Source: Stramenopiles sp. TOSAG23-3
Taxonomy: Eukaryota; Sar
Length of the DNA stretch: 28,404 nt
Direction: 5' to 3'
Assembly: GCA_900128585.1 (NCBI GenBank)
Contig: LT642247.1
Location: 1 to 28,404 of the forward strand
The translations under genes and the position numbers were made by a program. Positions 10,201 to 27,947 of this stretch are shown in pieces (the first letter of the stretch is position 1; the number at the start of each line of letters is the position of its first letter). The notes below the pieces were generated by a model. The model was not told where the DNA came from. It ran no database searches and saw only the letters and a list, made by a program, of their open reading frames with translations.

Positions 10201-13200
10201 TGGTTCAAGGGCCTATTGAAAATGCGCTCTTGAATGTTTTTCCGGAACGGAACTAGCAAATGATACATCGAAATGCCGGTCTCCTCGGAGAGACGCTTGA
10301 GTAGCATTTGCGCGGCGTTTCTTGACGTTTCAGAGCGGCGAACCAGCTCTGCAGTGAGCAGATCAATAATTCTGAAGAGGCTGGGATCTTGCTTCTTCAA
10401 CTCTACCATAGGTTCAAGGTCGTTCGACTCGCCCTCTTCGTTGCTCCCGGCCAAAATTGTTTTGGCGGTCTTACGGGACGACAACAGCATGTCAATCGTC
10501 TTCTGGGCCTGGGAAATTACATGGGCTTGAAACTCAAATGTGTGGTCAAAGAGTACAAACAGCAATGCTTTGAACATGGTAGTTTCGTTCGCTCGTATCC
10601 AGTCCATGGGCATTAATTTGTGAAGCTCACGGATACCGACGCAAGCGCCAACCTTTCGTTTCCAAGCTTTCTCAAACGAAGCATGGATGAGAACTTTCAA
10701 CAAGGCTGCCCAAACCGTTTTACCAATGCGGCACACGTCGCTGTCGGTACCGTCCTTCCTGTTGCACAAAAGTTTTGCCGTTTCCGCCATGAGACAGAGC
10801 GTACGCGTGGCAACTTCTACGATTTCGTTTTTGCCAGACGACCACCCGTCGGCCAGCACTTCGCAGATTATGGTCGGGTCGGCGTTGATATGTCCATCGG
10901 ACAGAGCGCTGCCTTTCTTCGACACGCTCAAGAGGAACAATTGCCTGACAAATCCCCGAAACAGGGGCCAAGCTTTCCTACTCATTTCTGTATCGGCGGC
11001 CGCTGTCATCATTCCCACCAGAATTTTCTTTAAAGTCTTCTCTCGTGCCCTCAACTGCTTCACACGAACCCCCTTTTTAGCAGACGAGTCCAGAGTGTCG
11101 CCATGCTCGTCGCCGGTTGCCGATTCAAGCCCCATGCGCTCGATTCCAATGCTCTGGTCGACGAACATGGCCAAGGAAGACGCCAGAAAACTCAATGCCA
11201 TGTGCTTGTAATGCACCCGTACTGCGTTTGGGGTTTCAGATCCTTGCTCATCTGGCGTTTTCCCCTCGCCTCTAATTTGAGCAACAAGCTTTGCGCTCGC
11301 CGCGGCTTCCCTGCGAACCCTTTCGTCGTCAAATTTAGGGCGTTTGGAACGCCTTCGTTTTGCCTTCTTCCCCGCACTGATGATCTCAGCGATGGTTCTC
11401 TTTGGGCCGAATTCGATTGCATCCTCGGGTGCCTTCGACGTTTCTCCCTTCTCAGCAATTTTACTTTCGACGTTTCCATCGCCCGTCGTTTTCTCTCTGG
11501 AAGGCGCGTTGGAAGAAGTTTTTGTGCCTTTCACTGGAACCCTTTCTCCTGAAAAATGCTTTTGTAGAAAGGCCGTTGAAAGGTCTACAAATTTGTCCAT
11601 CTTGAGCACACTGTTGGTCCCGGAGCGTTCGGCCCCATTGAAATTAAATGAAAATGCAAGCCCGGGGTTTACGTCTTCGAGAATATCAAACTCAACAGGG
11701 TTTGTCAAGTATATGCGGTTTTTACCCCCCATTTTCCCTAATATTCGTAGCGCTGTTGTCCCGTAGTTCGCCGGCTTCGGCTTCAACAGGTCCGTCAACG
11801 CCCCCATCAAGTCGAGCAATATAGGCTTGCGGCTCATGATGGGGTACAGAAACTCTGTGTTCAAGTTGTCGATCCAAAACTCTAGCGTGCGTAGCGCCAG
11901 CGTGATGAGCTCGGAGTGCACCGACTTCAGCGCCAGGATGACCGGGGTCATCAGAAGTGGCAAGTGCTTCAGCAAAGACGGCAGGCGGGCTGGGACAGTC
12001 AAACACAGCTCGATCAGAAGCCGTTTGGCATCTGGGTCGTCCGTCTTCTTCTGCATCGCCACCAGCCCTTTCAGCAAACCCGGGAGCAGTTGCAGCAGTT
12101 CTTTGTACAGAAGCTCAAATTTTCCGCCACCGATGGAACGAAAGAGGTGCCTGAGGAGCTCAAGGTGGTTCTTCGGGTCCTTTACTTCTGTGACGCACCG
12201 AAGGTTCAAAATTATGATTTTTCGTAGCTTGGGAAGGAGCACGCGCTCGTTGTCCTTGTACAGCTTCACAGACTGAAACACCATTTTGAACAATCGCAAA
12301 AGTATGGCGGCGCGTTCGTCGGCGTTAGCTCTCTCGCTATCGTTGTAAATCCCTTCCCCGTTGACGTCCGTGCTGACCCCTATCAGCTTCTTCTCTGCCC
12401 GATCTACTCGGTCCCACTTGGAACACCCAGATGACGCGTGCCCTGACAAATAAAACACGCGCTTTGGTTCTAATAAAAAGTCTAACAATATATCCGCAAA
12501 TATTTTCGACATTCGCGCGTTCGTCAAAAACAGCTGCGGAATGACCAGCAGCGTGCGGTCCGTTAACATATTCTCGTACAGCAACTCTAGCGCAGACCGA
12601 GCCACGCCCGTCTCGGTGGACCGGTGGAAAATGTCCCGAAAGTTTGCGTGGTTCAGCACGGTGAACACATTCCCGAAGTTTTCCAAAACGTCCTTCTCCT
12701 CGTCTCGATTGTCCGACTTTTCGTCCCGGTACACGTCAAAACACGCCAATGCTAGCTGGAAAAAGTTGGAGATAAGGGTGATCTCGTGCTCTGTCAACGG
12801 TACGGCGACCCCTTGTTTCTGCACCCTTTGGTCACGCGTGATGGTCGAGTTGGTCTCTCGAACCTTGTAATTGGACACGCACCATACTACCGTCTTCAAG
12901 CCAAGGATCATGGTTTTGATCAGCGCTTTGATAATTTTCGAGGACTCCGTTTTCGCGTCCAGGGACAGCGACTTGTGGGGGTCGCCCGGCGCGGCCCGGG
13001 CGGGCGGCAGCGTGCTTTTCGCGGGGACCTCGGGCTGGCCGTTGGCCCGTGGCGCCCCCTTTGCCTCGCTGGCGGGATCGGCTACGACCAGCGTCATACT
13101 GCCCTCCTCGTTGGTGGGCTTGGGGTCCTTGCTTGCAATGTCAGCGCTCGGGTCTTTGGCGGCGGACGGCGCAGCCTTCTCGGCTGCCCCTGGCTCCGCG

Positions 13201-15383
13201 CCTCGTGCTGTGTCGGCCGTGCTGGTGGCGGCGCCGGACGCGGCGCCGGCGTCAGGCGTCTTTTTTGCGGCATTCGCGCTGCCCCCCGCGGCGCGAGGGC
13301 GACTCCGCTGCGACGACGACTTTTCCGCGTCTTTGACAACCTTCAAAAGTGCGGAGCTGTAGTGTTTTGCGTGCTCCTTGGACGCGTCCGCCTTTGCCTT
13401 TTCTATGGCCCGGATCCTTGGTATGTCGTCCTTCAACGTGCTAAATTTATTGACAAGGGTGTTCAAGATGCGAACGAGCAGGTTCCACCCCCTCATCCGG
13501 TCGGGCTCTTTGTTGTGGTATATGTTGTCCACCAGGTTCAGAAGCAGCCGGACTGAGGTTATTTGAATGGACAAGGGCAGCATCGGATCGTCAATGTTTC
13601 GCGAAAAAATATAGATGATGTTGGATATTTGCTTCAGTTTCAGCTTCCCGCGAACGTGGTGGACCAGGTCCGCAATCGTAGAGTAAGCCAGCGGGCGCAA
13701 ACTGGTGTCGGACTGCCGCCCTGACCCAAGAAGGACCTTCTCTTTTAGCAGCTCGTTCACGAACGGGAAAAAGGAGCTTCGAAAATCAGTTGCCAAGATG
13801 TGTCGGGTGGCCACGAAGAGCTCTTTCCGGACTGCCGTAGCGCTTGTGGGGCAGACTTTGAACAGGTACACGACCGCCTCGGCGATCTGCTTGCTCTGTG
13901 GCTTCATCGAGACGGCGAAGGACTTGAGCAGGTACGTCAAGAACGACAGCGTCTTCACCTGGCAGGCCACCATTTCAAGGAGCCTCATCTGGTACTTTGA
14001 CTGGGAGGTCTGCAGGGTCATCGGTGGGACCTTGAGCTGGATGGCGGCGATCATCTTTGGGATCAAGTCCCTGATCTGCTCCCGGATCTGCATAGGGTGG
14101 AGCTGGTACAGCAGCATGACGATCAGCGGGCACTCGGTGACGACCGGGAACGAGTATAGGCACGGCACTGTGGTCTCGACCCGCGTGGTGGCCCTCTGGA
14201 AGGACTGGAGCTTGGTTGCCCCCAGGTTCCAGTACAGCTTTTTGACGAAACCCAAGAAGGCCTGGACGTGCATTTTGTTCTGGTTCTTGTTCGCCTTGTG
14301 GAGTTCGAAGATGATCTTCAAGCACACGAGGGCATTGGCCTCGTTCTCCTTGGGCAAGACGGCCATGACCAGGTCCAGTATCTTCTCGCAGTACGGGAAC
14401 CAGACGTTGTTGACCGGAAGCCGGTTGATGATCTCCAAAATGATGAACCTGATCTTGTTCTTAATCTTCATCGCCCGGTTCTCCGGAACATTCTGCTTGA
14501 TCTGCACCGTGATCTTCTTCTCCAAAATATACTTGAATGCCGGGAAGAGGTACTTGAGGAAGTTGGCGTACTCCTGGGTGTGCACGATCTCGATCCTTTC
14601 CCTCAAGTTGTTGACGATGTTGTACAGTTCCTCGACGCTGGTCCCGGTGGCGACCATCTTTCGTTGGGCAATCTCGAACTGGCTCATCTTGGGCTGTGAG
14701 TCCTTCCCCGGCACCGTCGACGACCCGTATGAGAGCCTGGACTTGGACCCGGAGGACGACGGTTTCGCCCGTGGGGAGGCCGCGGCGGAGGAGTACGAGG
14801 GCCGCTTCCGGTCCCCCCCGCTCACGTGGCTCGGCGAAGAGCTCGCGGACAGCGGGCGCTTTTTCGACCCCGACCCCGTTGGTTTGATGATGCTGCTGCT
14901 GCTACTACTACTAATACTAATACTACTATGTTTCGGGGAGGCTTTCGCCTTGGACGCGAGGGGCTTGATGTCCGGCACTTTCCGGGTCAGGGACGGGGAC
15001 ACGGCCCGTCCGTTGACGACGGGGACCGCGGGGGGCGAAGACATCGACTGGCGGTCGGCATCGATGCCCGGGGAGACGATGGAGCTCGAGCCGTTGCTGC
15101 TCGCAAGCGTCGCGCTCCCCGTGTTCTCGCCCGCTACCCCGTTGCTATTGCCCGACGTCGAAGACGAAGAGGGCGACGGCGTTGCCGTGCTGCCCTCCCG
15201 TTGGCGCTCCAGTGTTGCCCCCCCGTTGGCGCTCTGGCCGTCGTCTGCGGGGGGGGTGCCCGCCTTTCCTACACTAGTGATCGAGCCCGATGAGACTTCG
15301 ACTTCCATGTCGACATCCGCGGTGGACGACCCGTCGTCCGGCTTCTTTTTGTCCGAATTCTGCTTCGTTTCTATGGTAGCCAT
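1236..15383 (-). CDS. TRA1: TRRAP/Tra1-like PIKK pseudokinase scaffold, about 4715 aa
   Basis: This is the large scaffold subunit of SAGA- and NuA4-type histone acetyltransferase complexes, which binds transcription activators in the nucleus. The start is taken at the ATG at 15383 (MATIETKQ); the reading frame extends upstream only to a TTG. Residues 1-235 are Ser/Pro/Ala low complexity, then a very long helical-repeat (HEAT/TPR-like) region runs to about 3400. The FAT domain covers about 3400-4250 (for example WVVWIPQLISMLG). The PI3K-like domain covers about 4300-4680 and FATC ends in ASWQPWL, matching the Trp-rich end typical of this family. Catalytic motifs are degenerate: the usual Asp-Arg-His loop reads GHQEPHKMF and DFG is replaced by SDLHP, as expected for a pseudokinase. 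The protein is roughly 850-950 residues longer than yeast or human homologues (about 3750-3850). The excess lies in an Ala/Pro/Lys-rich insert (about 685-800), basic inserts (about 1325-1365, 2720-2810 and 2888-2930) and a coiled coil (about 2120-2250). It is one exon throughout. Confidence 0.95.
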   Translation of the reverse strand: MATIETKQNSDKKKPDDGSSTADVDMEVEVSSGSITSVGKAGTPPADDGQSANGGATLERQREGSTATPSPSSSSTSGNSNGVAGENTGSATLASSNGSSSIVSPGIDADRQSMSSPPAVPVVNGRAVSPSLTRKVPDIKPLASKAKASPKHSSISISSSSSSSIIKPTGSGSKKRPLSASSSPSHVSGGDRKRPSYSSAAASPRAKPSSSGSKSRLSYGSSTVPGKDSQPKMSQFEIAQRKMVATGTSVEELYNIVNNLRERIEIVHTQEYANFLKYLFPAFKYILEKKITVQIKQNVPENRAMKIKNKIRFIILEIINRLPVNNVWFPYCEKILDLVMAVLPKENEANALVCLKIIFELHKANKNQNKMHVQAFLGFVKKLYWNLGATKLQSFQRATTRVETTVPCLYSFPVVTECPLIVMLLYQLHPMQIREQIRDLIPKMIAAIQLKVPPMTLQTSQSKYQMRLLEMVACQVKTLSFLTYLLKSFAVSMKPQSKQIAEAVVYLFKVCPTSATAVRKELFVATRHILATDFRSSFFPFVNELLKEKVLLGSGRQSDTSLRPLAYSTIADLVHHVRGKLKLKQISNIIYIFSRNIDDPMLPLSIQITSVRLLLNLVDNIYHNKEPDRMRGWNLLVRILNTLVNKFSTLKDDIPRIRAIEKAKADASKEHAKHYSSALLKVVKDAEKSSSQRSRPRAAGGSANAAKKTPDAGAASGAATSTADTARGAEPGAAEKAAPSAAKDPSADIASKDPKPTNEEGSMTLVVADPASEAKGAPRANGQPEVPAKSTLPPARAAPGDPHKSLSLDAKTESSKIIKALIKTMILGLKTVVWCVSNYKVRETNSTITRDQRVQKQGVAVPLTEHEITLISNFFQLALACFDVYRDEKSDNRDEEKDVLENFGNVFTVLNHANFRDIFHRSTETGVARSALELLYENMLTDRTLLVIPQLFLTNARMSKIFADILLDFLLEPKRVFYLSGHASSGCSKWDRVDRAEKKLIGVSTDVNGEGIYNDSERANADERAAILLRLFKMVFQSVKLYKDNERVLLPKLRKIIILNLRCVTEVKDPKNHLELLRHLFRSIGGGKFELLYKELLQLLPGLLKGLVAMQKKTDDPDAKRLLIELCLTVPARLPSLLKHLPLLMTPVILALKSVHSELITLALRTLEFWIDNLNTEFLYPIMSRKPILLDLMGALTDLLKPKPANYGTTALRILGKMGGKNRIYLTNPVEFDILEDVNPGLAFSFNFNGAERSGTNSVLKMDKFVDLSTAFLQKHFSGERVPVKGTKTSSNAPSREKTTGDGNVESKIAEKGETSKAPEDAIEFGPKRTIAEIISAGKKAKRRRSKRPKFDDERVRREAAASAKLVAQIRGEGKTPDEQGSETPNAVRVHYKHMALSFLASSLAMFVDQSIGIERMGLESATGDEHGDTLDSSAKKGVRVKQLRAREKTLKKILVGMMTAAADTEMSRKAWPLFRGFVRQLFLLSVSKKGSALSDGHINADPTIICEVLADGWSSGKNEIVEVATRTLCLMAETAKLLCNRKDGTDSDVCRIGKTVWAALLKVLIHASFEKAWKRKVGACVGIRELHKLMPMDWIRANETTMFKALLFVLFDHTFEFQAHVISQAQKTIDMLLSSRKTAKTILAGSNEEGESNDLEPMVELKKQDPSLFRIIDLLTAELVRRSETSRNAAQMLLKRLSEETGISMYHLLVPFRKNIQERIFNRPLNHFMNEEQIARISCATFALSLKGKPLFDVDQSVIKFLMESVHLSSSDRLQARLLPINLDSGGIAVADSATRKILGLDGNPADIVEDLEYPFCGRHRTNLCVYTVGLIWACTVASPTVFADESRAQSRNQCIQFCCRSLTAISPDIVAASKHALGALITSLQKSLPNDLLKTSLRPVLANLAKFDNLTPALLNALAHVLEMLSKAFNDALAKQLLDHLRQWTQPAQIILAGQWEAGKEPEVAAKTIALFQYLPPSVASFMEDLVAVTLKLESVLHRYRTQRNDTKDRTKKVDVSGCGYSPFRSPLTQFLAKYPKQTVEFFLKKERLVNRPHAKLFQAIIKLPEARSIRDELMTSEATNTVINNMFLLQIKTSTDPNAKHGDGFEAISIAPSLPEPSPQDLENARQDLARAQVMLTKARKAYQSSYTKQKKLINDGTKQYKTLQGKLNAAVKKVQDYKHKSYSAKLKDTAHKNVEKYKKELLDSREKLKLAAQKQHQTTKKCEEAVERAERSFEEQQRLVSKVQRRLVSMAIERSPAGQVLMESEEKGAKEKAEYWAKMWANAQLKKARDVIQRQNVRRTADTNLPELNAKPKNKDAGDTSNASTSSDGTTSFWGENGLQNTSAHERKIMELRFQGIKIFHTLSHSDPKWLTSDKKITKCLLMMWEMPGRVERLQKEEEVELRHRQESKLLVECLQNVYRADTSNVSILFRMLNVFTERSVIDYTFLKRFFAEELSKIATVEAKKTLVTLYLEYFNGTKATETLKTLAIQYLLIPVLSAVFADKTIKNSDVLGDDLIKKIVSSLVESSASNKATEKLLVELLKLATLLVEFMSSELTVHRKNLIKFAWNHLKSKDALSKNWAYINVCRFIAMYETPPKIILQVYVALLRMTAPESRPLVRKALDILVPVLKDRLPHDEFVKSIKWTKKVIYEDGHSLSNVIHVWGVIVKNPSMFYGHKEQFMPQMVNCLSRLALPGNATLENRSLAVDLVEIIIVWEIEREKRSKLVKLQDQSKSLKAAARLAKKEAKLKLARKQARIEKKRKAAGKCPLKLRKASQTKWVLSSERKPSKRYKSRPISRRNLSYPKRPFSSLQSMGPASRPDKSITMIINFLIRLSLSTVQVGNQDILWRRCTELLARGLSVWPLTSIKNFSFKKLLEVPQKSSRGSSNRGRSTGSDNSSYPSTSKPKGRGAAGKAKKGSQRSTAATRARQAVDDVTSASQNIKPGVLLACLEVLNTMLRFSTPAKKNKFIQSNIAEIMTLLEPCLRTISTVDYGAIKPSQLEIGESANNVFSFGAYADRDQRNFLEEVILLNKCFRRFITRLIFCFPMHNAPKEFTDCRFYGYFKDLLDKSVTAGISARTKVTDFYNKYGNSKSGLKPPSGKGEAAGRFTGFAALQCISVLAKAHSPTALMYIGFFNKVLEALALDRTAFVHPSKDEKGRKISKLEGPTEGAHAFKLAMGMIGKSISRIHDKPDKRYFLNTLSHVIHKNDNTFVLEAIVSLVSNWMNLSVHLHTPLNDQEKEAFLIKMFTLMRFRDQHHALPLLTKYFDIIYSMCSLPEDSRPDWLNVQLKRPFMSALFSPNPIQRRMFYKLYVAKLNRDGKLHSTFSRVLSTLVQDWEPVNNRFWLPLATECILAGRVETSSISLDSSTPGFAPIEEAPEGFRLLGKGNTTTELTAMIAEQSAFLQSVRGNMTVKRVLTPLHELSHADPRVAIEMWGQVYPAAWASLDERSQMALVRPLTSLLSQQYHKRQLRLGSGFGYRRNVVQALLLGLAKSNPAPLIPAELLMFLGKTYNAWHTAIRICERQVFERDNHTQEGFESWTRVLDNLYTSLNETDHSKGLRHLTSESRETTAALDLQANGQWKQSQEVLVNAISEHMDGRLSEFELAGWKSSWVESCRQLAQWDVLLNYCLPATNEPKVLLECAWKTPKWSLVKKLFASPSVKAVTEETTPDSKLLLYQIYLAIQEWKLSDVDQYCRHGVQLVLQKWQSLPSTTSAAHIPLLQTFQNLVEVQESSKILVELKETRERDSSRMPDLNKYMHVWRERLPNRWEDAVVWTDVLTWRMHMFDFIKSESVRRNQRSRSKQDQSGQVQDTPWTALKICEVARNHKLKDLGLKFMDKLSNISQMEIGPAFKKLQQQISLCLDEPLRLKNGLAMINNTNLSYFQSEQKAELFRLKALFLERLGETREAESAFSKCLNVCQSFGEGWLSWGQFYDRLLHIACRGESAAVLREDASLELGAKTLEGLPLEYACHVMSCYLHAIYTRKEENTQLLLARVLRLLQCDDPSGRLLKIFTMHVDDTPIWSWVVWIPQLISMLGKEGSGQAHRVLTEIAKRYPQALYYSLRAFLLECRSEERSRQKKGAAAAPPADESDPARPKSAAKFAEELMNTIKRSHSPIAFEIESLLEELIVKFKQGPEEELLYFVHGLFAKCMRLQLKESTMGEVGVPNSIRVTLERITARFFPSEARGLHPRHAECYNLYAAAFRKDFSMSSRPRMSVEGLVRKLSKWKYIINNHLDQSLSRLSGSMNMEDCSSKMVAFSSQNIELPGQYSCDSEPNLSQNVTISLIETDYSILRRSDLSHTHQCRISIRGSDGLLNNFLLQNTAPKMTPRDERVAQFFELTNRLMAVHAPARQRNVRSVVPVIVPITPRIRLLKECSASTSLSSVYEDFCAAAGVDEVLPFIMAKNASVLSHPDFLFDGSPAEARAANRVRTYRTICETLVPNSILTDRVSALADSYEKLWYIRKQFATQTAVISYLSYLLSMGHQEPHKMFVSAQSGTTMYSDLHPLYSPDGLFASTGAVPFRLTRSMAHFLTPAGIHGTLTNSMMAVGSALKENEAFFEDYLFLLLQDDMEQQRAAIESSHAAETAKGEDGEEKKKEKDAVVDTDGDAIMGDADAAMGDGGPKGSKTIPYNVSVVKNMYCVLDRLDETTPINIPAVHDRTSCLAGTRSVDNPACMNGRIRDLLNDAMDVEKLASMPASWQPWL
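14886..14930. repeat. Trinucleotide repeat coding for a Ser/Ile run
   Basis: A run of GCT and ACT/AAT triplets lies inside the TRRAP-like gene. On the coding strand it gives mixed AGC, AGT and ATT codons, encoding SSISISSSSSSSII near residue 160. Two serine codons are used in blocks, which suggests slippage expansion within a disordered N-terminal tail. The reading frame is kept. Confidence 0.85.
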
Positions 15384-16138
15384 GCTTGTACAGGCGCAAA
15401 AAATAAAATTAAACGACAACCCCCGAGTACGTGTCCTGGAAAAACGTACCTACCGATATCCAACGGGCTGAAACAAGGGAACTTTCGAACGCACACGCAG
15501 GAAGACGATGACCTGGGTGGGTGTAAAGAGATCGCCACACGCACGCACTGGACGTTACCAAAACTGTCCAAATGCAGCCGAAACAGAACGGTGTGTGTGC
15601 GTTTGTGCCTGGCCGGATGTTGTGCGGGCGGTGTCGGGCTGATGGGTCGACAGACGGACGGACAAAGGCGATCAACCAACAAATACAAATAAATCCACGA
15701 ACTTCTTAAAATGGATCCCTTTCTTTCTTTTCTTTAATCTCCAACGCTGTCGGAAGAACACGATGGGAAAACGGGACGGAACAAGAGTGGGAACCAGATA
15801 GACCAATTGAAAAGCAAACAAACGCATAAATACCTTTCCAAATGTTTTTTGTTGTTCATTGTTTCCTTCTTCGCCTCTTTTGCTTTCCTATTTATTATTA
15901 TAAACTATTTTTATTACACACTAATAATACTTTTATTGATTCAAAATGAAGGAATCCATTATCTTTCCTCATTCCTCATAAATCCAAGAAAACATAATTA
16001 TTTATTAAGGATAATATATTTCAATATAAATGTATACAACTATAATAAATATAAGTACACAAATAGAACTACATAAATTATATAGAAGGACAATAGAAAT
16101 AAGTAGATAATAAATCAAATTCAGTTTTATTAATATGC

Positions 16139-17672: not shown

Positions 17673-17888
17673 ATCCCTTGTTTAAAAAAATTGAATGGAC
17701 ACAAGCCAACAACAAAAGTATTCAACACAGATTTTACGCCGCTGCTTGGAAAATCACTCAAGGATGAGTCATCTATGAGTGAGACACCGGCTGTGGAAGT
17801 TGATTACGGATCAATTGAAAGCATTGCTCATCCACCTACCGATTCGGATCATGCATGGAGTACATCTGAGAATGATAGTCAAGACTAA
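17673..17888 (+). pseudogene. C-terminal gene fragment ending SENDSQD, family unknown
   Basis: An open frame without a convincing ATG runs from after a TGA at 17670 to TAA at 17886-17888. The tail is acidic and serine-rich (DYGSIESIAHPPTDSDHAW, then SENDSQD). The same frame can be read, with two single-base indels, in an inverted copy at 24535-24709, so protein-level conservation is visible: DYGSxxSIAxPPTDSDHAWxT. The fragment looks like the end of a once longer protein left after duplication. A short internal ATG (17775) would give a 37-aa peptide. It lies 140 bases after the ankyrin gene on the same strand. The parent family is not recognised. Confidence 0.5.
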
Positions 17889-17907
17889 GTGACACGGGTA
17901 TATTGAA
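17697..17907 (+). repeat. Dispersed inverted repeat, copy 1
   Basis: This matches the reverse complement of 24535-24709. The best block runs from ATCTATGAGTGAGACA (17771) through CAAGACTAAGTGACACGGG to ATATTGA at 17907, with scattered substitutions and single-base indels. Copy 1 has an extra stretch of about 35 bases after ACACAAGC. The two copies enclose about 6.6 kb that contains the large membrane-protein gene. Confidence 0.8.
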
Positions 17908-18984: not shown

Positions 18985-21900
18985 ATGTTCCGTGTTTTCG
19001 TTTTGTTTTGCTGCGTCGGGGTTGCGCTGGCGGCGGAGTGGAACTGCTCTGCTAGTAGTGGGGTGTTTACGCTGTCGAGCGACTGTGTGGTGAGCAGTCA
19101 AGTAGAAGTTACTGGTATTCTTTCACTTACTGGCGTTGTCAACGCGTCGGGCGTGCTCCCTCGCGTGGTTGGGGGAGGCTCCAACCGTCTGTTCAAAGTA
19201 GAGAGTGGTGGTGAGCTGGTGGTGCGGAGTTTGAACTTGACGGGAGGTAATGCAACAGGTACAGAAGATGATGAAATGGGCGGGTTCCTTCACATAAGTG
19301 GTGCTGGTTCAAAGTTCATCTGTCAACAAAGTATTGTGGGCAAACATTCTTCAGAAGCTCAAGGAGGGGCAATACTAGCAAACTCCGGAGCGAAAGTTTT
19401 TATTCACGAGGGTTGTAATTTTGAAGACAATGTTGCTGGAGGTGACGGTGGTGGTGCAATATTTTCGGCAGCTGCGAATTCCTTGGTGAATATATCCGGA
19501 AGGAGTACCTTTCGTGGGAATCACGCAATTAATTATGGAGGTGCAATTAATGTGCATTCACAGTCAAAACTTATTGTTAGCGAAGGAGCAATATTTGAGA
19601 ACAATTATGCTTCGGTTGGTGGTGCTGTACGAGGTGCAGGCAGTAGTACGATTACAATATCAAATAACGTTTTAATTCAAAACAATACTGCAGTTATTGC
19701 GGGTGGTGGTGTATTCATACAAGCGGGAGCCACAGCAGATATTTCTGATTCAATTATAGTCAACAATAAAGCAAATTCTTGGGGAGGTGGGCTGGGGGCA
19801 CATGCAAATTCACTCTGGGGCAGCATAGTAACGTACATGTACGTTCGCGATACGAAGGTGTCAAATAATTTTGGAAATAATGACGGCAACGATGTAAAAG
19901 TAAAAAGGGAAGGTGACAGTCAAATGAAAATGAACTTGGTTGTTCACCTTGTAAATATTGATTTCGGAATGTCCATGACGGAAAATAGTGTTGATACTCG
20001 TGATGCCAATGGCAATGCAATTGACTATACAATAAAAAATTGCTCTGATAATCCATGCATTTATAAGCCTTATTCTGCTTGTTTTGACCGTATTGTCAAT
20101 GGTCAAACCAATGTCGGCGTAGAATGCAAACCTCGACCAGACATCACGCGCATCTCGCCAAACAACCATTCGACCGTAGGTGGGGTTAACACATCATTTT
20201 ATGGCCAACACTTTGGTCGTAGCAACTCTGTCGTTTCGATAGAAACAAATGGCGAGGCATGGAACAATATCGTTTGGCGTAACGAAACGTGGATAACAGC
20301 AACTTCTCCGCCCGGGACTGGAAAATTGTATCCTGTCCACATGTCCGTCGATGGAATTGCTTCCGTACTGCCCACTGTACTATTTTCTTACTCACCGCCC
20401 AACATTTCTTCTACCGTGTCGCCCCCGTTTAAAGGTGGCACATTACAACTTTTTGGCATCAATTTTGGAGTCTCTCCCACCAAAATTTCCATCATGACGC
20501 AGGAAACAGGTGGTGGTTGTTCTCGAGAATGCACTGAACCTGAAGTGTCCAGCGGTAAAATAACCTGCCAATACGATGGCGTCGGAACCAAAGACAGTTG
20601 CCGAGAGGTTGTCGTCACTGTCGATGGTCAATCCAGCAATCGTGGAAATTTTTGTTATGATGCCGACCGAGGAGAAATGGTTTTCAACGATTTTCCCCCT
20701 CGTGTGACGGAGAAGGAAGCGTTCCAGTATAGCATTGGGTTGAGCACGGGGCTTGTGCGTTCGGCCAATGTCAAGGTTACCCTTGAGGCGGTATCAACAA
20801 AGCCTGAACTGGAATGTACGGTATCACCGACTGTGCTAATATTTTATCCAGACAATACAACACACGCTGTCAATGTACGAACGGATGGGAACCAAATTGA
20901 TGAAGGTACGGATGCGACAGCGTATTCGTGTGAGATATCCCACAGCGTTGCATCCACTGACTCTCAATATGCGGATTGTCCACCTAAGACGCTTACCGCA
21001 AACATCATCAACGACGATGAGGCGAATGTAAAGTTGTGGACCATTAACGAGGACACTGCCGAGTACGAGTACGATGTCAAATTTCTTCCATTTTTTATCG
21101 AAGAAGGTGAAAATGCATCGTACGGCGTTCGTTTGGATACCTCTCCGAATTCCACGGTCAAAGTGGAACCAGCAATACAATTGACGAATGCGCAAACCAT
21201 CTTGGAGCCTTATCCTGTGCTGAAGGTTGTCCCGCTGGCGTTGGAATTTGATTTCACAAATTGGAATGTCACGCAACGCCTTACCGTTCACTCTGTCCCG
21301 GATAAGATTGACCACAACGCGGTACGATTTCGAATTCTTCATAACATTACGACAACCGACAATGTGTTATTGAACAAGGCAACTGCACAGCCCATGCTGG
21401 TTGATGTTCGCGTAAACGACGATGATACGGCTGGTATTGATGTTGCCGACAAGAAAGCGTTGACACTTAAAGAAAATGGCCCCACCGAAAGCATCACCAT
21501 CTTGAAATTGAACTCGCAACCCGTGTTTGATGTGACCATCATGGTGGATATCCCATCTCCCCTTGTCAAAGCGTCCGTGCCTTCTTTCTACATTTCGAAG
21601 AACGCTTGGAATAGTGTCAGTCAGACCATCGCATTTCAAGCATTGGCTGGTGTTCCTAGTGACTCGATAAAGATTCACTTGCGTCCTGTAAGCGACGACC
21701 CCAAATATAACGGCGCCACCGTGGCAATCGATGCTACTTTGGTACCTAGCGGAGTAGCCCCCTCCAGACCCTTCGTTACCCATGAATCTCAACAACGCTT
21801 GCGAATATCTTGGTCGCACGCCAATACCCAATTCGAAGTACAATGGAGCGAGCAAGATACCTTTGCAAACGCGAATACCACCACGACAAATGCATCGGAG

Positions 21901-23751
21901 ATGTTCATCCATACAAAGACGCCCCTTGCGCTGGCCGTGGTTTACGTTCGCGTGCGGGCTGCCGAAGGCCCGTGGTCGCCAATATCGGAGAAATGGGTGA
22001 CGGCCGGTACCTGCGATATTGTGAACCAGTACCTGAGCACCGCCAATACTCTCTACGCGTGGAAATGCCAACAGTGTCCAGACGGCGCGTATTGTCAGGG
22101 TGATGACGTCACATGGAGCAAAGTCAAAGCGATGACAGGATACTGGAGAGTACCGAATAGAGCCATATTCGTCAAGTGCTTGAATCCCTGCTCGTGTCTA
22201 GGTGCTCCAAACCCTTTAATTTCATGCCCAGAAGCATTACAGCACAACCCAGAAGGCTGCAACACCGCGCAGGGGTTTCGACAAGGCTCCCGAATGTGCG
22301 CAGATTGTCTCCCGGGGTACAGCCGCGACGGTCGGGGAGGCTGCAAGAAATGCGGAGAAAAGGGGCTCAACGTGTTGTTTCCCATTTTGGTCGGGTGTAT
22401 GATTCTTCTGGTTTTGTTTTTACTAGTCTATTCGACGGTGGTAAAACGTGGAGGGGCATTCGAAAGTTCGGACGGGGCGAGAAAGATATTTATCTCGTAC
22501 CTTCAGCTATCATCACTTGCCACAACGATGAAGATTGCATGGCCTGTGGATTATATGACCCTGTTTCGCATCGAAGGCATGCTGTCATCTGTTGGCGAAG
22601 AGATGCTAGACATCCGGTGCGCGTTGGAGCAACCGATTCCCATCGCAACCATTGAATATTACAAGACGGTAGCGTACGCTTTTGTTCCGTTTGTACTCGT
22701 GTTTCTCTCTGTCCTCGGTTGGTCTACCTGTGGCCGTGTCGTGGCACGTCCAAAACGCCGCGCGATGATGGTGGGAACCATCGTGCTCCTACTATACTTG
22801 GCGTACCCTTCCATCTCCGCCGGCGTGCTCGGCTTATGGAAATGCGAGTACGTCGAGTCGGTGGGTTATATATTCGTAGTAGACCCTGAGACCTTGTGCA
22901 GCGACGTATCCCACCGGCAGTGGCTGAATCTGCTGGGGTGGCCGTGCATTCTGTTGTATGTGATTGGACTTCCCGCGAGCCCCGCACCCGTATACGATTT
23001 GGGCAATTGTACGATGGTTTTACGCGTGAAAATTATCTATACGAGGGTTGGGTAACCCTCCGCAAGGTGCTGATTATTATCATTGGAAATTTCACGGTCA
23101 AATTGCAGGTTCACTTGGCCATTGGTTCCGTTGTCTTGTTGCTGGGGCATACTATCTATCGACAGCCGTACCAGACTCGCAACTTGACGCATTTGGATAC
23201 ACTGCTTCTTTCGTGCGTCTTCTTCACGTACTGGGTGGGAAGTATCTTTGGGGTCTATCCACAGTGCCATTCGAACGAATGGGAAGCCGAGGTATGCAAA
23301 GCCGGCCAATGGGTGGTGTTCTTATTTAACATAGCATGCTCTGCAATAGGTTTTGGAATGTGCATTTGGCTGACATGGATAGAAGAACGGGAACAGCTGA
23401 CAGGGTCTGCAAAGGGCTTGTGCGCTGCGATTTCCAGATGGCGCATCTTTCGACCCTGCTGTCGCAAAGGGCTTGGTATCTGGTTGAGAGCGTCGCAAGC
23501 CGAATGGTCTACGAACCCGTTGGACAGAGAGGTGGAACTGAAAGCAATCGTTCGGTCGAGAGGTCAAGACACTGCGGGAGAAGGATACGAAACTGGAAAG
23601 AGAAAACAAAACACTGCGGGAGAAGGACACGAAACTAGAAAAAGAAAACAAGACACTGCGGGAGGAAAACAAGCGATTGAAGGCTGGAAAAACAGAAACA
23701 TGGGAAGAATTGCAAGACGAAGAAGGAAGGGGCATATCATTACAATCGTAA
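18985..23751 (+). CDS. Secreted-type mosaic protein: beta-helix, IPT/TIG, Calx-beta-like, multi-TM, coiled coil; frame broken twice
   Basis: The product is about 1590 aa across three reading-frame segments. Residues 1-17 form a clear signal peptide. Residues about 72-275 are GGAI/GGGV-type turns of a right-handed parallel beta-helix, like polymorphic outer-membrane (Pmp) repeats. Residues about 384-560 carry one or two IPT/TIG folds (PDITRISPNN...VGG). Residues about 571-920 hold Calx-beta-like units (NDDDTAGIDV, then LKENG). A fibronectin-III-like stretch covers about 925-1008 and a Cys-rich module about 1009-1125. From residue 1127 about seven membrane helices follow, then a coiled coil. 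It is probably a cell-surface protein with a large ectodomain, possibly adhesive or sensory. Frame 1 runs to about 22980, where homology to the following RIRFGQLYDGF segment continues in the -1 frame. That frame then shifts back at about 23541-23566 into the heptad tail, ending at TAA 23749-23751. The breaks may be a small deletion plus an insertion, sequencing errors, or pseudogenisation. Confidence 0.8.
23566..23682 (+). repeat. 42-base tandem repeat encoding heptad coiled coil
   Basis: There are two full 42-base copies (23566-23607 and 23608-23649) and a partial third (23650-23682). Each encodes a two-heptad unit, KTLREKDTKLE(R/K)EN, with leucines in a coiled-coil pattern, ending in KTLREENKRLK. 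The unit is in frame with the terminal TAA at 23749. The low number of substitutions suggests recent expansion. Confidence 0.85.
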
Positions 23752-24170
23752 TTCTGTGTGAAACGTCATGGGAGCCGCCAATGATAAGCAACCCGATGCG
23801 AAAATAGTTAATTATATTTTGTAAAACATTATGTACGGCACGCGTCCACTCGCTTGACAGCTTCCACTCGGTGAAATAGGCCAGCATCTGTTGTCGCCAG
23901 CACTTGTAGCACATTGGCCAGTCGAGGTAAGGGTAGCGCGTTTGGTGCAGTTTCATATCGGCCCAATGTATGACTCCAGTCGGCCGTCCATCCATCTTGA
24001 CCGACTGTCGTTTTGTCGCGCCCCGTACGCTTTCACCAGCCGTCTAAGAAAAGAAATGACGTATCGTTTCTATTGCGCGAGTCTTGTTTTTTCATGGTAA
24101 CCAGTGGCGAGCCCCCTTTAAATACAGCGATTTTTTGCACGTATATAAATGGCGACGAATCTAGTGTACC
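23752..24170. other. Intergenic segment with a possible minus-strand coding relic
   Basis: On the minus strand an ATG at 23995 opens a frame whose first 60 or so residues look protein-like and aromatic-rich (YPYLDWPMCYKCWRQQ, then AYFTEWKLSSEWTRAV). It then runs antisense through the coiled-coil repeat of the previous gene, where it has no meaning. It may be a gene relic of unknown family. A TATA-like TATATAAAT lies at 24142-24150 on the plus strand. Confidence 0.35.
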
Positions 24171-24561
24171 ATGGAAAAGATTCGAGTGGTCAAGATCAAC
24201 GTGCTCCACTTTCTCTCCGAAATCACGGTCATCGAGTACCAAGTGCATCAAGTACACGGCGGCGCACATAAACATAGAGGTGCGGGAATTTAGGGACGTT
24301 TCCATTGCTTTGTTTGGACAATACGGCGGTGAAATGCTGGACGATGTGCTGTCGAAGCACATGAACGAAAAACACCACGGCGTTGCCATAGACTCTGAGA
24401 CTGGCACGGAGAGAATGAAAATGATTTTGTACTTGTCCGAAGACAAGCATCATTTTTTTGCCACCACTCCAAAGAAAGGCGGCAAAGGGGAAAACCCATG
24501 TACCGCGAAAGTGAATCTGCTCCTTTTTTACAGTCTAATCAATATACCCGTGTCACTTTAG
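24171..24561 (+). pseudogene. Small frame-shifted gene, product unknown
   Basis: The ATG at 24171 has a strong context (ACCATGG) and lies about 25 bases after TATATAAA. Its frame (MEKIRVVKINVLHFLSEIT...) stops after 40 codons near 24293. The +1 frame is open from before this point and gives a protein-like tail (INIEVREFRDVSIALFGQYG, later ETGTERMKMILYLSEDKHHF) to the TAG at 24559-24561. Joining the two with one frame correction near 24260 would give about 130 aa. The last few codons lie inside the inverted repeat copy 2, so the original C-terminus may be lost. No family is recognised. The alternative is that only one of the two frames is real. Confidence 0.35.
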
Positions 24562-24709
24562 TCTTGACTATCATTCTCAGATTGTCCTCCATGCATGATC
24601 CGAATCGGTAGGTGGATTGGCAATGCTGGCAAATGACCCGTAGTCGATCTTCCTCGTCCGATGTCTCACTCATAGATAACTCAAACCTGGTCTGATTTTG
24701 CTTGTGTTC
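24535..24709 (-). repeat. Dispersed inverted repeat, copy 2 (decayed gene fragment)
   Basis: This is the reverse-complement partner of 17697-17907. Read on the minus strand it contains MSETS, then DYGSFASIANPPTDSDHAW and SENDSQD, but these pieces sit in different frames because of two single-base indels relative to copy 1. It therefore appears to be a decayed copy. It begins directly after the stop codon of the NAT-methyltransferase gene and would lie in its 3' UTR, much as copy 1 follows the ankyrin gene. Confidence 0.75.
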
Positions 24710-24716
24710 TATTTTT

Positions 24717-27700
24717 TTACCTTACGAAATACACCGTCCTTGTGGGCAATTCCACATATTTATTAGTCGTTCGCCATTTGCAGAAAGGATGAAGTGTGTG
24801 ATCCGATCGAGCAAGTCCGACGTATTCTACCTTTTCACCAAATCTAATCGGAAGCAATGATGTACCACGAATTAATTTTAACGCAGTACGGTAGGTTATA
24901 CTGCCCGGGTCTAGATCTTTTTCCTCACGGTCTTTTTCCTTTTTTATCTTGGTGTACTTATCAACCTCTTTGAAATCTAGTTTTAAAGTAAAAGTTCCAT
25001 TCTGTGCTCCAAGAGCGTTTAATTTTGCAATTGCACGTAGCATTCGTTGCACGACTCCTCTCCGTTTGGCATTTTCACGTTTTTCAATCGTCGTTTTCTC
25101 TTCTTGATCAATCGCGCCCTCCTCCACAGGATAGTTTTTCAGATGATTTTCACTCTTTTCCCCTTCTACTTCCTTGCACTTTGGTCGCTCGGTGATTAAC
25201 ATCACCCCGAGCTCCATGCCATCGTTGTCCGCTAACATTTTGTCGATACGAACACCTGGGATAATGTCACTCATGCACAAATTACAAAGATCACCACGAA
25301 AAGATTGTGGTATTGCGTCGTGTGTTTCCTCTCCATGAACTTCCTCGTCAATTAAAACATTGTTGCCAGGCTCTATTATGTTCATCATGAAGCCGTTGAT
25401 ATACATTTCACCCCCGGGTGAAAGAAGATTCGCATAAAACTCCAGTGATCCAAGTGGATCTGCAAGGTGGCGAAATGTCCACGATGATACAATAAGATCA
25501 TAACGATTGAAGCGCTCAAAACCACGACCGTTTGTGGAAATTGGTTGAAAAATTGGTTCGATTGGTATGGTGGATGGACATTCAAATGGGACAGATTGAA
25601 GGATTATCGCTGGTGAACATTCAAATTCTGTTAATTCCTTTTGGATAGTTGCCTCCTCTTCTGCTTTTTTGTACAATGTCCATGCGGCATCTTCCCTAAG
25701 TTTTTCTTCTTGTGTTTTTTCTCGACTGCTTACTCCTCTCCTTTGTAAATTAGTATTCTTTATACTCCAGCACAATCGAGCCATGTCTTCTGCTCTCCAA
25801 TCGTTAAAACCACTTTCACGATGCTCAGCCAAATCTTCCTTGATCATTGCAATTCGCTCTTTCTTGATCTGTAACTTTTTACGAAGGCTATTTTCTAGCT
25901 GTACTATTCCCAGTTCCAACGCATCGTTTGCACTCATAACACCACGATCGTACACAATTTTATTGCACGATGGATCATGTAGTCTCGCATCGGTTTTAGC
26001 ACCCACGTGATTCTCGTAAAAAACTTTGTTGCCCCCCGTTATCCCATGCCAAAGAAATTGATTCTTCTGAATATGTTTTGTACCCTGGGGAAACCATTCT
26101 ATATTTATGTTCACTTTAACTTGATTGCTCTTGGTTTTACCGGTTATCGTCTTTTGTAATGCTACTTGTTCACGTCTTTCTGATCTCCAAATAAAATTGT
26201 AAATTTTCCATTTTCCAGTTGAAGCTTTCGCTAACGAAGCTTCTAAATGATTCAAATTTGCTTTAATTTCCTCCAAAATGTACGTTGAGGCCATCGCGAG
26301 CCACCTTCCCTTGCCACATCCAACATCCAAGACCTTTAAATTTGGGTGCAGCGTATAATTTATGCTTAAAGGATCCTCCTCCCTGTTACCTTGGATCCTG
26401 TTGGCGCTTAAAACTATGTTTTTCGTAAGAAGTATCAATTTTTCCAGCACATCTGGCGCTTGCAACTCTTTCTCGATCTCCAAGCGCTTCTTTGCGACCA
26501 TTTCAACGAGTAATTCAAATTCTGCTGGGTTTTGTACAGTTTCATTACTGTGTGCCTTTAAATTACTAGCCCGTCCGAAACTTTCAAACTGATAACTCCA
26601 ATTCCCATCAACCGGCCAATTACCGCCCGTAGTTCCATCCATCCCAGCACAATAACGTTCCAAAACCCCATCCAAAATAATCCTAGGTCGTCGTTGCATA
26701 AGAAACGGAGATAATTTGCTGTTATTTTCATCTTCGCCAGACATTAGGAAGCGTTGCCAGTCTTTACCAAGTTCTCTTCGACGAGAAAGAACTGGGTTTT
26801 CCTTGGAGACACTTTTACGTAATCTAGAAACCTCTGTGTTATTTTCTGCCTCTTGGATTTTCCTTTTCATAAAATCACGAAAAGTTTTATGCAAAATGTT
26901 GCAATCACTTTCATTGAATTGACCGCGCTGAACTTGTTGCTGGATAACTTCCGTGCGGAAGTCATCAACCTTTGCATTGTTTTGCTGCAAAATAGAATCT
27001 AGTTTTTTAGCTCGCTCTAATTTCGAACTTGCGCTATATCCTCGTCCAAACAGTGCGAACAGTCTTACCGCGTCTTGGTCAGAGATGTGGGCAAGATGAA
27101 AGTGCTCGTGCAGGGTGCCTTTGAGCTCTGACGGAGTCCCGAGGCGATCGTGCCGGTACGTCAAGCCGGTGACGGCATTTCGCTCGGTAAAGCTGAGGTC
27201 ACGGAGAGTGAGGCGTCGCCCGCGATGGTAGCGCGTTACAATAAGGCGCCGGGACAGGTCACTAGTCGCCGAGGACGCCCGGGCGTTGTCGGCCTCCAAG
27301 TGCGTTGGTGGAAACACTGGCGTTCCCGACTCAAAGTCATAGACGGCGCGCCAGCGTGAGTCGCCTGGCCTGCGCGCCTCGAGACGGTATGTTGCCGCGT
27401 ACCCACCACACTCGTTCACAACTGTTCGAATGCGCCTCGGGCCGTCCGCGGTCGCCTGCTCTGTTCCCACCATGCCGTCCAAACGCACCGGGCACGACAT
27501 GGACATGGAGCCCAGCGCGATGTCAACAAGCCAGCGCTCCGGCGGGGGCCGGAATGCATCATCATTCGCCGTTGCAGCAAGGTCGACAACAAGAAAGAGA
27601 TGTGTGCGGTTGCTAATATCAGTGTCCTTCCTCAAGTGAAGACGCATGAGCGCTTTGCATGGCCAGGCATTGTACCCGAGGGCGCGAAGCACCGCGAGAA

Positions 27701-27947
27701 AGAGCAGCCCTTGCTCGAAGCAGCACCCGCCGCGGCCGTCTATGAGCATTTTCTGTCGCAATGCCACCCGGGCCAAGGACACGGGTTCTTGGAGCAAGAC
27801 ACTCAGGTTTTCGAACGGAACATTAGATATGTGCATCTTCATGAGATGTCGGAGCGTCTCTAGGTTTGGTAGATCAACACGAGGTGCCGCAGCGTCGTTT
27901 TGAACTCTCCGCCGGTATAATGCGAGGTCCTTTGGAGTAAGAGCCAT
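24717..27947 (-). CDS. Arylamine N-acetyltransferase fused to a SAM-methyltransferase-like region
   Basis: The product is about 1076 aa. The start is the ATG at 27947 (MALTPKDLALYRRRV); the frame before it reaches only a TTG. Residues 1-296 form a complete arylamine N-acetyltransferase, which transfers acetyl from acetyl-CoA to arylamines. The active-site motif GRGGCCFEQG gives Cys76, with His116 (NRTHLFLVV) and Asp142 (WLVDIALG) completing the Cys-His-Asp triad. The rest is lysine/glutamate-rich and AT-rich. It contains SAM-methyltransferase motif I (VLDVGCGKGRW, Asp541) and a motif IV/post-motif segment (YDLIVSSWTFRHLADPLGS, Asp817, then LLSPGGEMYING). These are separated by about 276 residues instead of the usual 50-70, so the Rossmann fold carries a large, partly coiled-coil insert. 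The C-terminus ends TRTVYFVR. Composition steps from GC-rich (NAT) to AT-rich (methyltransferase) near 27060. Substrate of the second half is unknown. Confidence 0.85.
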   Translation of the reverse strand: MALTPKDLALYRRRVQNDAAAPRVDLPNLETLRHLMKMHISNVPFENLSVLLQEPVSLARVALRQKMLIDGRGGCCFEQGLLFLAVLRALGYNAWPCKALMRLHLRKDTDISNRTHLFLVVDLAATANDDAFRPPPERWLVDIALGSMSMSCPVRLDGMVGTEQATADGPRRIRTVVNECGGYAATYRLEARRPGDSRWRAVYDFESGTPVFPPTHLEADNARASSATSDLSRRLIVTRYHRGRRLTLRDLSFTERNAVTGLTYRHDRLGTPSELKGTLHEHFHLAHISDQDAVRLFALFGRGYSASSKLERAKKLDSILQQNNAKVDDFRTEVIQQQVQRGQFNESDCNILHKTFRDFMKRKIQEAENNTEVSRLRKSVSKENPVLSRRRELGKDWQRFLMSGEDENNSKLSPFLMQRRPRIILDGVLERYCAGMDGTTGGNWPVDGNWSYQFESFGRASNLKAHSNETVQNPAEFELLVEMVAKKRLEIEKELQAPDVLEKLILLTKNIVLSANRIQGNREEDPLSINYTLHPNLKVLDVGCGKGRWLAMASTYILEEIKANLNHLEASLAKASTGKWKIYNFIWRSERREQVALQKTITGKTKSNQVKVNINIEWFPQGTKHIQKNQFLWHGITGGNKVFYENHVGAKTDARLHDPSCNKIVYDRGVMSANDALELGIVQLENSLRKKLQIKKERIAMIKEDLAEHRESGFNDWRAEDMARLCWSIKNTNLQRRGVSSREKTQEEKLREDAAWTLYKKAEEEATIQKELTEFECSPAIILQSVPFECPSTIPIEPIFQPISTNGRGFERFNRYDLIVSSWTFRHLADPLGSLEFYANLLSPGGEMYINGFMMNIIEPGNNVLIDEEVHGEETHDAIPQSFRGDLCNLCMSDIIPGVRIDKMLADNDGMELGVMLITERPKCKEVEGEKSENHLKNYPVEEGAIDQEEKTTIEKRENAKRRGVVQRMLRAIAKLNALGAQNGTFTLKLDFKEVDKYTKIKKEKDREEKDLDPGSITYRTALKLIRGTSLLPIRFGEKVEYVGLARSDHTLHPFCKWRTTNKYVELPTRTVYFVR

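What the first reader, a model, noticed from the sequence alone, without database searches (positions are those of the whole stretch)
24717..27947. NAT-methyltransferase fusion with a base-composition step at the junction
One uninterrupted frame joins a complete arylamine N-acetyltransferase (intact Cys76-His116-Asp142) to a long region with SAM-methyltransferase motifs. I know of no standard family with this order. The NAT half is GC-rich and the rest AT-rich, changing near 27060 just after the NAT fold ends (FALFGRG). This suggests a gene chimera, possibly with one half acquired by transfer. A bifunctional acetyl/methyl-transferring enzyme for small amines is a speculative idea.
Basis: partly seen in the sequence, partly recalled or inferred. 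Interest (0 to 1): 0.75.

Follow-up and report, generated by a model that had tools for sequence, protein, structure and literature searches.

The report
Acetyltransferase–methyltransferase fusion gene in protist
In a compact genome of an unidentified eukaryote, two genes that are found apart in related sequences appear to have been joined into one, so that a classic arylamine acetyltransferase is followed directly by an uncharacterised methyltransferase-like protein; it is probably a real but local novelty whose joint function is untested.

Summary
Window 24717-27947 (-) is one open frame of 1076 residues: a complete arylamine N-acetyltransferase (NAT; PF00797, residues 28-285; Cys76, His116, Asp142), then a methyltransferase-like half. 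GC falls from 0.60 to 0.41 at residue 294. The host is a eukaryote: a 4727-aa Tra1/TRRAP gene shares the contig. Homology to a free NAT (P0006) stops at residue 299. Homology to a NAT-free protein (P0004, 50% identical) starts at residue 308. Eight residues lie between. The conserved block 308-359 lies upstream of the first internal Met, M360, and no other usable ATG was found; as it stands it is read only through the NAT. Best reading: a fusion of two formerly separate genes. The composition step marks the join but does not show foreign origin. Another odd methyltransferase frame in this genome (TTI1 + Methyltransf_16) hints that such joins are not unique there. Coupled bifunctional action is untested. 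An assembly error or a tiny frame-shifting intron is disfavoured, not excluded: there is no transcript, the NAT sits at the contig end, and no second species with the fusion was found.

The parts
24717..27947 (-). NAT-methyltransferase fusion ORF, 1076 aa
27051..27947 (-). arylamine N-acetyltransferase part, residues 1-299 (PF00797 at 28-285; Cys76, His116, Asp142)
27027..27050 (-). 8-residue linker FGRGYSAS (residues 300-307) between the two homology blocks; GC change point at 27067 (27112-27008)
26358..27026 (-). N-terminal region of the second half, residues 308-530; no Pfam family above cut-off; conserved in P0004 (YCAGMDGTTGGNWPVDG.WSYQFE); first internal Met is M360
26292..26348 (-). motif I region, residues 534-552 (LDVGCGKG from residue 540)
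25593..26291 (-). stretch of 233 residues between motif I and the motif IV region (553-785), which holds insertions relative to P0005
25389..25502 (-). motif IV region, residues 816-853 (YDLIVSSWTFRHLADPLGSLEF...GGEMYINGF), shared with P0005 and P0012
24720..25235 (-). C-terminal region, residues 905-1076; no Pfam match; partly conserved in P0011, with a short similar stretch (SITYRTALK, from residue 1016) in P0005 by eye
27034..27068 (-). possible 35-nt intron (GTAAGA...ATATAG), by eye only; if spliced, the NAT would end after 8 more codons
   Evidence: sequence and stop list; no transcript seen

Best explanation
A real gene fusion in an intron-poor eukaryote. A free NAT gene and a free methyltransferase-like gene, of the kinds seen as P0006 and P0004, became joined end to end: the NAT lost its stop codon, and the other gene lost its start codon and the DNA between. 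One protein results, made of two enzyme parts that each keep their own active site. The NAT would take an acyl group from acyl-CoA onto Cys76 and hand it to an amine (inferred from the family). The second part would transfer methyl groups from SAM (inferred from weak but above-cut-off profile matches). Tethering would fix their ratio and place in the cell; a shared or consecutive substrate is possible but not shown. Shown: the frame, both homologies, the abutting boundaries, the lack of another ATG start, the composition step. Inferred: expression as one protein, both activities, any benefit of the join, and that the separate state is the older one.
For: Uninterrupted frame. NAT complete with its triad. 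NAT relative P0006 (115 of 293 aligned columns identical) aligns up to residue 299 and ends 10 residues further on. NAT-free P0004 (352 of 702 aligned columns identical) aligns from residue 308. Block 308-359: 25 of 52 aligned positions identical, score 97, maximum 49 in 1000 shuffles. No in-frame Met between M159 and M360. In the other frames the ATGs before the junction are closed by stops (27340 by 27238, 27178 by 27163) or absent (which covers coding positions 430-1110). Methyltransf_23 is 35.4 bits (cut-off 27) for a typed construct that leaves out 189 residues in two stretches. One match each for NAT and for the second half in the 12.9-Mb assembly, both here. The contig is tied to its host by Tra1 and by a dispersed repeat 17 nt past the stop codon. 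P0010 comes from a source labelled 'merc' and P0011 from 'eukprot'; that these are metatranscriptome and eukaryote collections is recalled.
Against: No transcript or read coverage for this genome. No second species with the fusion: of the 5 proteins found for the second half none is listed with NAT, though P0010 and P0011 are fragments. P0004's start is a predicted one and its upstream DNA was not seen, so an upstream exon there is not excluded. The NAT side is the last 1.35 kb of the contig (the window is the whole contig) and its 457-nt flank has no other copy in the genome, so an assembly join cannot be formally excluded. Apparent frame slips occur elsewhere (L021; the TIG gene of this window, by eye). 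The second half lacks an obvious acidic residue where motif II is expected (GITGGNKVF; by eye, same in P0004), its PDB profile search gave nothing at E<=10, and its model was too poor to test the fold (mean pLDDT 34.7).
Confidence: 0.78

Rival explanations
1. The two halves are joined only on paper: an assembly join or small deletion error removed the NAT stop, the intergenic DNA and the start of the second gene.
For: The NAT lies at the contig end; composition changes at the junction; apparent frame slips occur elsewhere: a run of G in L021 and two places in the TIG gene of this window (by eye). P0004 has no NAT.
Against: The join falls in frame and between two complete homology blocks, 8 residues apart; an accidental join would rarely do that, and homologues confirm both frames next to it. 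The assembly showed no second copy of either half that would show an unfused arrangement.
Confidence: 0.12
2. Two products from one locus: the 35-nt stretch 27068-27034 (GTAAGA...ATATAG) is a tiny intron; splicing shifts the frame and ends the NAT at about residue 301, while the unspliced message makes the fusion.
For: Consensus-like ends, and a stop 8 codons after the splice (by eye; stop at coding position 938).
Against: Chance GT...AG pairs are common; a 35-nt intron would be very short; many long ORFs in the sampled contigs are uninterrupted, though introns were not searched for; no transcript. The spliced form would leave the second half without a start.
Confidence: 0.05
3. A sub-case of the best explanation: the fusion is real but neutral. 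A compact, intron-poor genome joins neighbours now and then, and the two parts act independently with no shared substrate.
For: Another odd frame in the same genome joins TTI1 domains and Methyltransf_16. No second species with NAT plus this second half was found.
Against: Both halves remain open with most of their motifs, but a recent accident would show that too; nothing here separates a neutral join from a selected one.
Confidence: 0.45
4. One half was recently acquired from a bacterium or virus.
For: The composition step; a motif IV stretch shared with proteins of a Rickettsiales MAG and of Odyssella.
Against: The bacterial matches cover only 33 and 36 residues of the query. Four viral scans found nothing. 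The NAT half lies in the upper-middle range of sampled GC3, the other half at the low edge but not outside it. No tree was made.
Confidence: 0.07

Closest known systems
Arylamine N-acetyltransferase family (PF00797; e.g. solved structure 2bsz)
   Same: Complete NAT region with Cys-His-Asp triad; nearest sequences found are P0006-P0008, which carry PF00797 alone (P0007 and P0008 are short).
   Different: Extended by 777 residues with a second enzyme-like part; the solved NATs listed are 263-344 residues long.
Class I SAM-dependent methyltransferases (PF13489 Methyltransf_23)
   Same: Motif I LDVGCGKG and a motif IV region YDLIVSSWTFRHL; profile score above cut-off.
   Different: 233 residues between the two motif regions, an extra N-terminal region of about 220 residues and a C-terminal region, neither with a Pfam family above cut-off. 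No solved structure at E<=10 for the second half's profile; the whole protein gave one weak match outside the NAT, 2ffj at E 0.46, residues 327-382.
P0004, P0010 and P0011 (unnamed proteins of sources ena, merc and eukprot)
   Same: Same second half: P0004 50% identical over 87% of it; P0011 69% and 62% identical in two C-terminal blocks.
   Different: No NAT in P0004, whose predicted start is at the junction; P0010 and P0011 are fragments and cannot tell.
Melatonin route (serotonin N-acetyltransferase, then O-methyltransferase; recalled)
   Same: Acetylation followed by methylation of an amine-derived molecule is a known two-step logic.
   Different: Those enzymes are separate and of other families (recalled); nothing here points to that substrate.

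Membership tests
Arylamine N-acetyltransferase (PF00797) | Profile score above the curated cut-off, nearly whole profile | tested here: met
   110.8 bits against 22.8, profile 1-233 of 240
Arylamine N-acetyltransferase (PF00797) | Cys-His-Asp catalytic triad | tested here: met
   C76, H116, D142, aligned to 2bsz
Arylamine N-acetyltransferase (PF00797) | acyl-CoA-dependent transfer to an amine | not testable with these tools
   needs an assay
Class I SAM methyltransferase | Profile score above the curated cut-off | tested here: met
   Methyltransf_23 28.3 bits against 27, in two stretches; 35.4 for the construct without 189 residues
Class I SAM methyltransferase | Glycine-rich motif I | tested here: met
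   LDVGCGKG from residue 540, matched by Methyltransf_31 at 534-552, below that family's own cut-off
Class I SAM methyltransferase | Acidic residue at the end of strand 2 (ribose contact; recalled) | tested here: inconclusive
   by eye GITGGNKVF, no acid, same in P0004; strand assignment uncertain
Class I SAM methyltransferase | Rossmann-like fold | tested here: inconclusive
   model of mean pLDDT 34.7, pTM 0.23; no fold search made
Known NAT fusion proteins | A published NAT joined to a methyltransferase | tested here: inconclusive
   none seen in the listings. One search listed 20 of 562 papers, all 20 with 0 mentions of arylamine N-acetyltransferase; one search found 0 papers. PMC11213898, a survey of about 4,600 NAT genes, has 0 occurrences of fusion, fused, chimer or methyltransferase in its main text. 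Most subscription papers are not held

The most novel reading that the evidence does not exclude
A bifunctional acyl- and methyl-transferring enzyme in which the NAT and the methyltransferase act on the same amine or in sequence: a NAT with a covalently attached partner enzyme, of which my searches found no published example.
Probability: 0.2. Interest if true: 0.6.

Novelty: new variant of a known kind. Interest (0 to 1): 0.4.

Why it matters
NATs are studied mainly as single-unit enzymes that process drugs and other foreign amines, and the natural substrates of many microbial NATs are unclear (recalled). A partner fused to one would be a clue to a pathway. The second half also belongs to an unnamed methyltransferase-like protein group with long insertions, seen in environmental sequence and in one EukProt entry.

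Tried and rejected
Viral origin: four scans of viral contigs, no relative (for the second half; for NAT). Prokaryote genomes: one scan, 2 loci of 21 matching stretches confirmed, both confined to motif IV. Start at M360: rejected because block 308-359 is conserved. Ribosome skipping between the halves: no NPGP in the protein. Composition step as a wrong-frame artefact, as in L021: rejected because homologues confirm both frames. TPI-GAPDH fusion as a lineage mark: TPI stands in a 268-aa frame of its own, so no help. No light-harvesting family match; the assembly may be incomplete, so this does not exclude photosynthesis. Lineage by 18S rRNA: not completed. Structure of the second half: too poor to search with; NAT and full-length models were not obtained. 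No phylogenetic tree was made.

Counting note: the first ORF count used 250 aa and gave 68 ORFs. The later one used 300 aa and left out all L021 ORFs and ORFs with more than 5 N, giving 52.

Full report
What is there. On the minus strand, 27947-24717 is a single open frame of 1076 residues. Residues 28-285 match PF00797 at 110.8 bits (cut-off 22.8), and Cys76, His116 and Asp142 are in place. The second part scores above the Methyltransf_23 cut-off (28.3 against 27) in two stretches, the best at 808-850; Methyltransf_31 matches the motif I region 534-552 below its own cut-off. A typed construct that keeps residues 530-573, 628-643 and 779-874 and leaves out 189 residues in two stretches scores 35.4 bits over profile positions 23-116 of 164, as expected for a methyltransferase core interrupted by insertions. 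The regions 302-529 and 905-1076 have no Pfam family above cut-off, and the stretch 553-785 only weak matches below cut-off.

The host. The same contig carries a 4727-aa uninterrupted Tra1/TRRAP gene (Tra1_ring, Tra1_central, FAT and kinase domains above cut-off; FATC below it). The window is therefore eukaryotic, and it is the whole contig C507. The own genome is 12.88 Mb in 660 contigs. Twenty sampled 10-kb stretches hold many long uninterrupted frames (68 ORFs of 250 aa or more); introns were not searched for. The lineage could not be named: the rRNA search did not complete.

Composition. The best single change point is at residue 294 (support 279-314), GC 0.597 to 0.410. For GC3 the change is 0.66 to 0.37, likelihood gain 36.9; the highest of 500 codon shuffles reached 8.8. 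The NAT half is ordinary for this genome (43 of 52 sampled ORFs have lower GC3). The second half is at the low edge (1 of 52 lower), beside the L014 frames at 0.36 and 0.38 (the second is under the 300-aa limit). One of those looks like a GPN-loop GTPase (by eye). So the step reflects two genes of different composition and does not by itself argue for transfer.

Homology boundaries. The search with the second half returned 2 proteins at E <= 0.001 among 7994 scored: P0004 (756 aa) and P0005 (591 aa). By its length rule a protein the size of the fusion was eligible. A profile search returned 5 at E <= 0.01 among 7993 scored: P0004, P0010, P0005, P0011, P0012; P0004 and P0005 were part of the query profile. 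None is listed with a NAT domain; P0004, P0005 and P0012 were also scanned, P0010 and P0011 were not. P0005 and P0012 align mainly at motif IV; P0010 and P0011 are fragments. P0004 aligns from residue 308 of the fusion and residue 9 of its own, so its predicted start lies at the junction. The NAT search returned 4 proteins at E <= 0.001 among 3261 candidates. P0006 aligns up to residue 299 and ends 10 residues later. Eight residues, FGRGYSAS, lie between the blocks.

Why it is one gene here. Block 308-359 is conserved with P0004 (25 of 52 aligned positions identical; score 97 against a maximum of 49 in 1000 shuffles) and lies upstream of the first internal Met, M360. In its frame there is no Met between M159 and M360. 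In a second frame the two ATGs before the junction are closed by stops (ATG 27340 by TAA 27238, ATG 27178 by TGA 27163), and in the third there is none in the stretch examined, coding positions 430-1110. As the sequence stands, the conserved block can be translated only from within the NAT, from a non-AUG start, or after splicing from an exon not recognised; the last two I could not test. The assembly search showed one NAT and one copy of the second half, both here.

Weak points. The NAT side is the last 1.35 kb of the contig, and its outer flank has no other copy in the genome. Apparent frame slips occur elsewhere: at a run of G in L021 and, by eye, at two places in the TIG gene of this window, so assembly errors or broken genes are present. 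No transcript was available. No second species shows the fusion. P0004's upstream DNA was not seen. The structure model of the second half is unusable (mean pLDDT 34.7) and no fold search was made. The acidic residue expected after strand 2 is not evident by eye.

Mechanism. The best-supported reading is an in-frame fusion of two formerly separate genes that gives a two-enzyme protein with independent active sites. The same genome holds another frame that joins TTI1 domains and a Methyltransf_16 lysine methyltransferase, all above cut-off. 1096 aa of it were read, the open frame is 1392 codons, and its boundaries were not tested with homologues. A third frame joins a sulfatase-modifying-factor-like domain and a methyltransferase and resembles the known enzyme OvoA (recalled). 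Joined genes may thus not be rare in this compact genome, and a shared substrate should not be assumed.

Literature. The listings showed no NAT-methyltransferase fusion. One search was uninformative: 20 of 562 papers listed, none of the 20 mentioning arylamine N-acetyltransferase. One search found 0 papers. In PMC11213898 (seen: the start of the abstract, passages, section 5), a survey of about 4,600 microbial NAT genes, the terms fusion, fused, chimer and methyltransferase do not occur in the main text. The library excludes most subscription papers and no supplement was read, so this is not proof of absence from print.

Noticed in passing
G000 C483:18500-23500, locus L049 1710-5000 (-): One frame joins TTI1 (TELO2-interacting protein 1) domains to a Methyltransf_16 lysine methyltransferase (1096 aa read, open frame 1392 codons); GC3 0.61 and 0.51 in the two parts. 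Possibly another fusion.
   Followed up: partly
window 24540-24699 and 17750-17905: A dispersed repeat of about 160 nt: 41 listed matches in the own genome, itself included (40 of 136 candidates scored), the others at 77-95% identity; one copy lies 17 nt past the fusion's stop codon.
   Followed up: partly
window 18985-23807: A large TIG-domain gene that looks like a membrane protein, with apparent frame slips near 22975 and 23550 (by eye) and a 42-nt tandem repeat near its end.
   Followed up: no
L021 near 2005: A run of 8 G where the frame slips; the wrong-frame continuation gives a 0.475 GC3 step that mimics a fusion.
   Followed up: yes
L047 2869-4905 and L048 2356-3615: Proteins of a Rickettsiales MAG and of Odyssella thessalonicensis share an RHL.DPLG motif IV stretch with the second half.
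   Followed up: partly
P0004 and P0011 C-terminal parts: P0011 has about 100 residues after ITERP where the window's protein has about 25; P0004's end looks frame-shifted relative to P0011 (by eye).
   Followed up: no
window 1236-15419 (-): Tra1/TRRAP of 4727 aa without interruption, with GC3 from about 0.58 in the middle to 0.8 or more at both ends.
   Followed up: no
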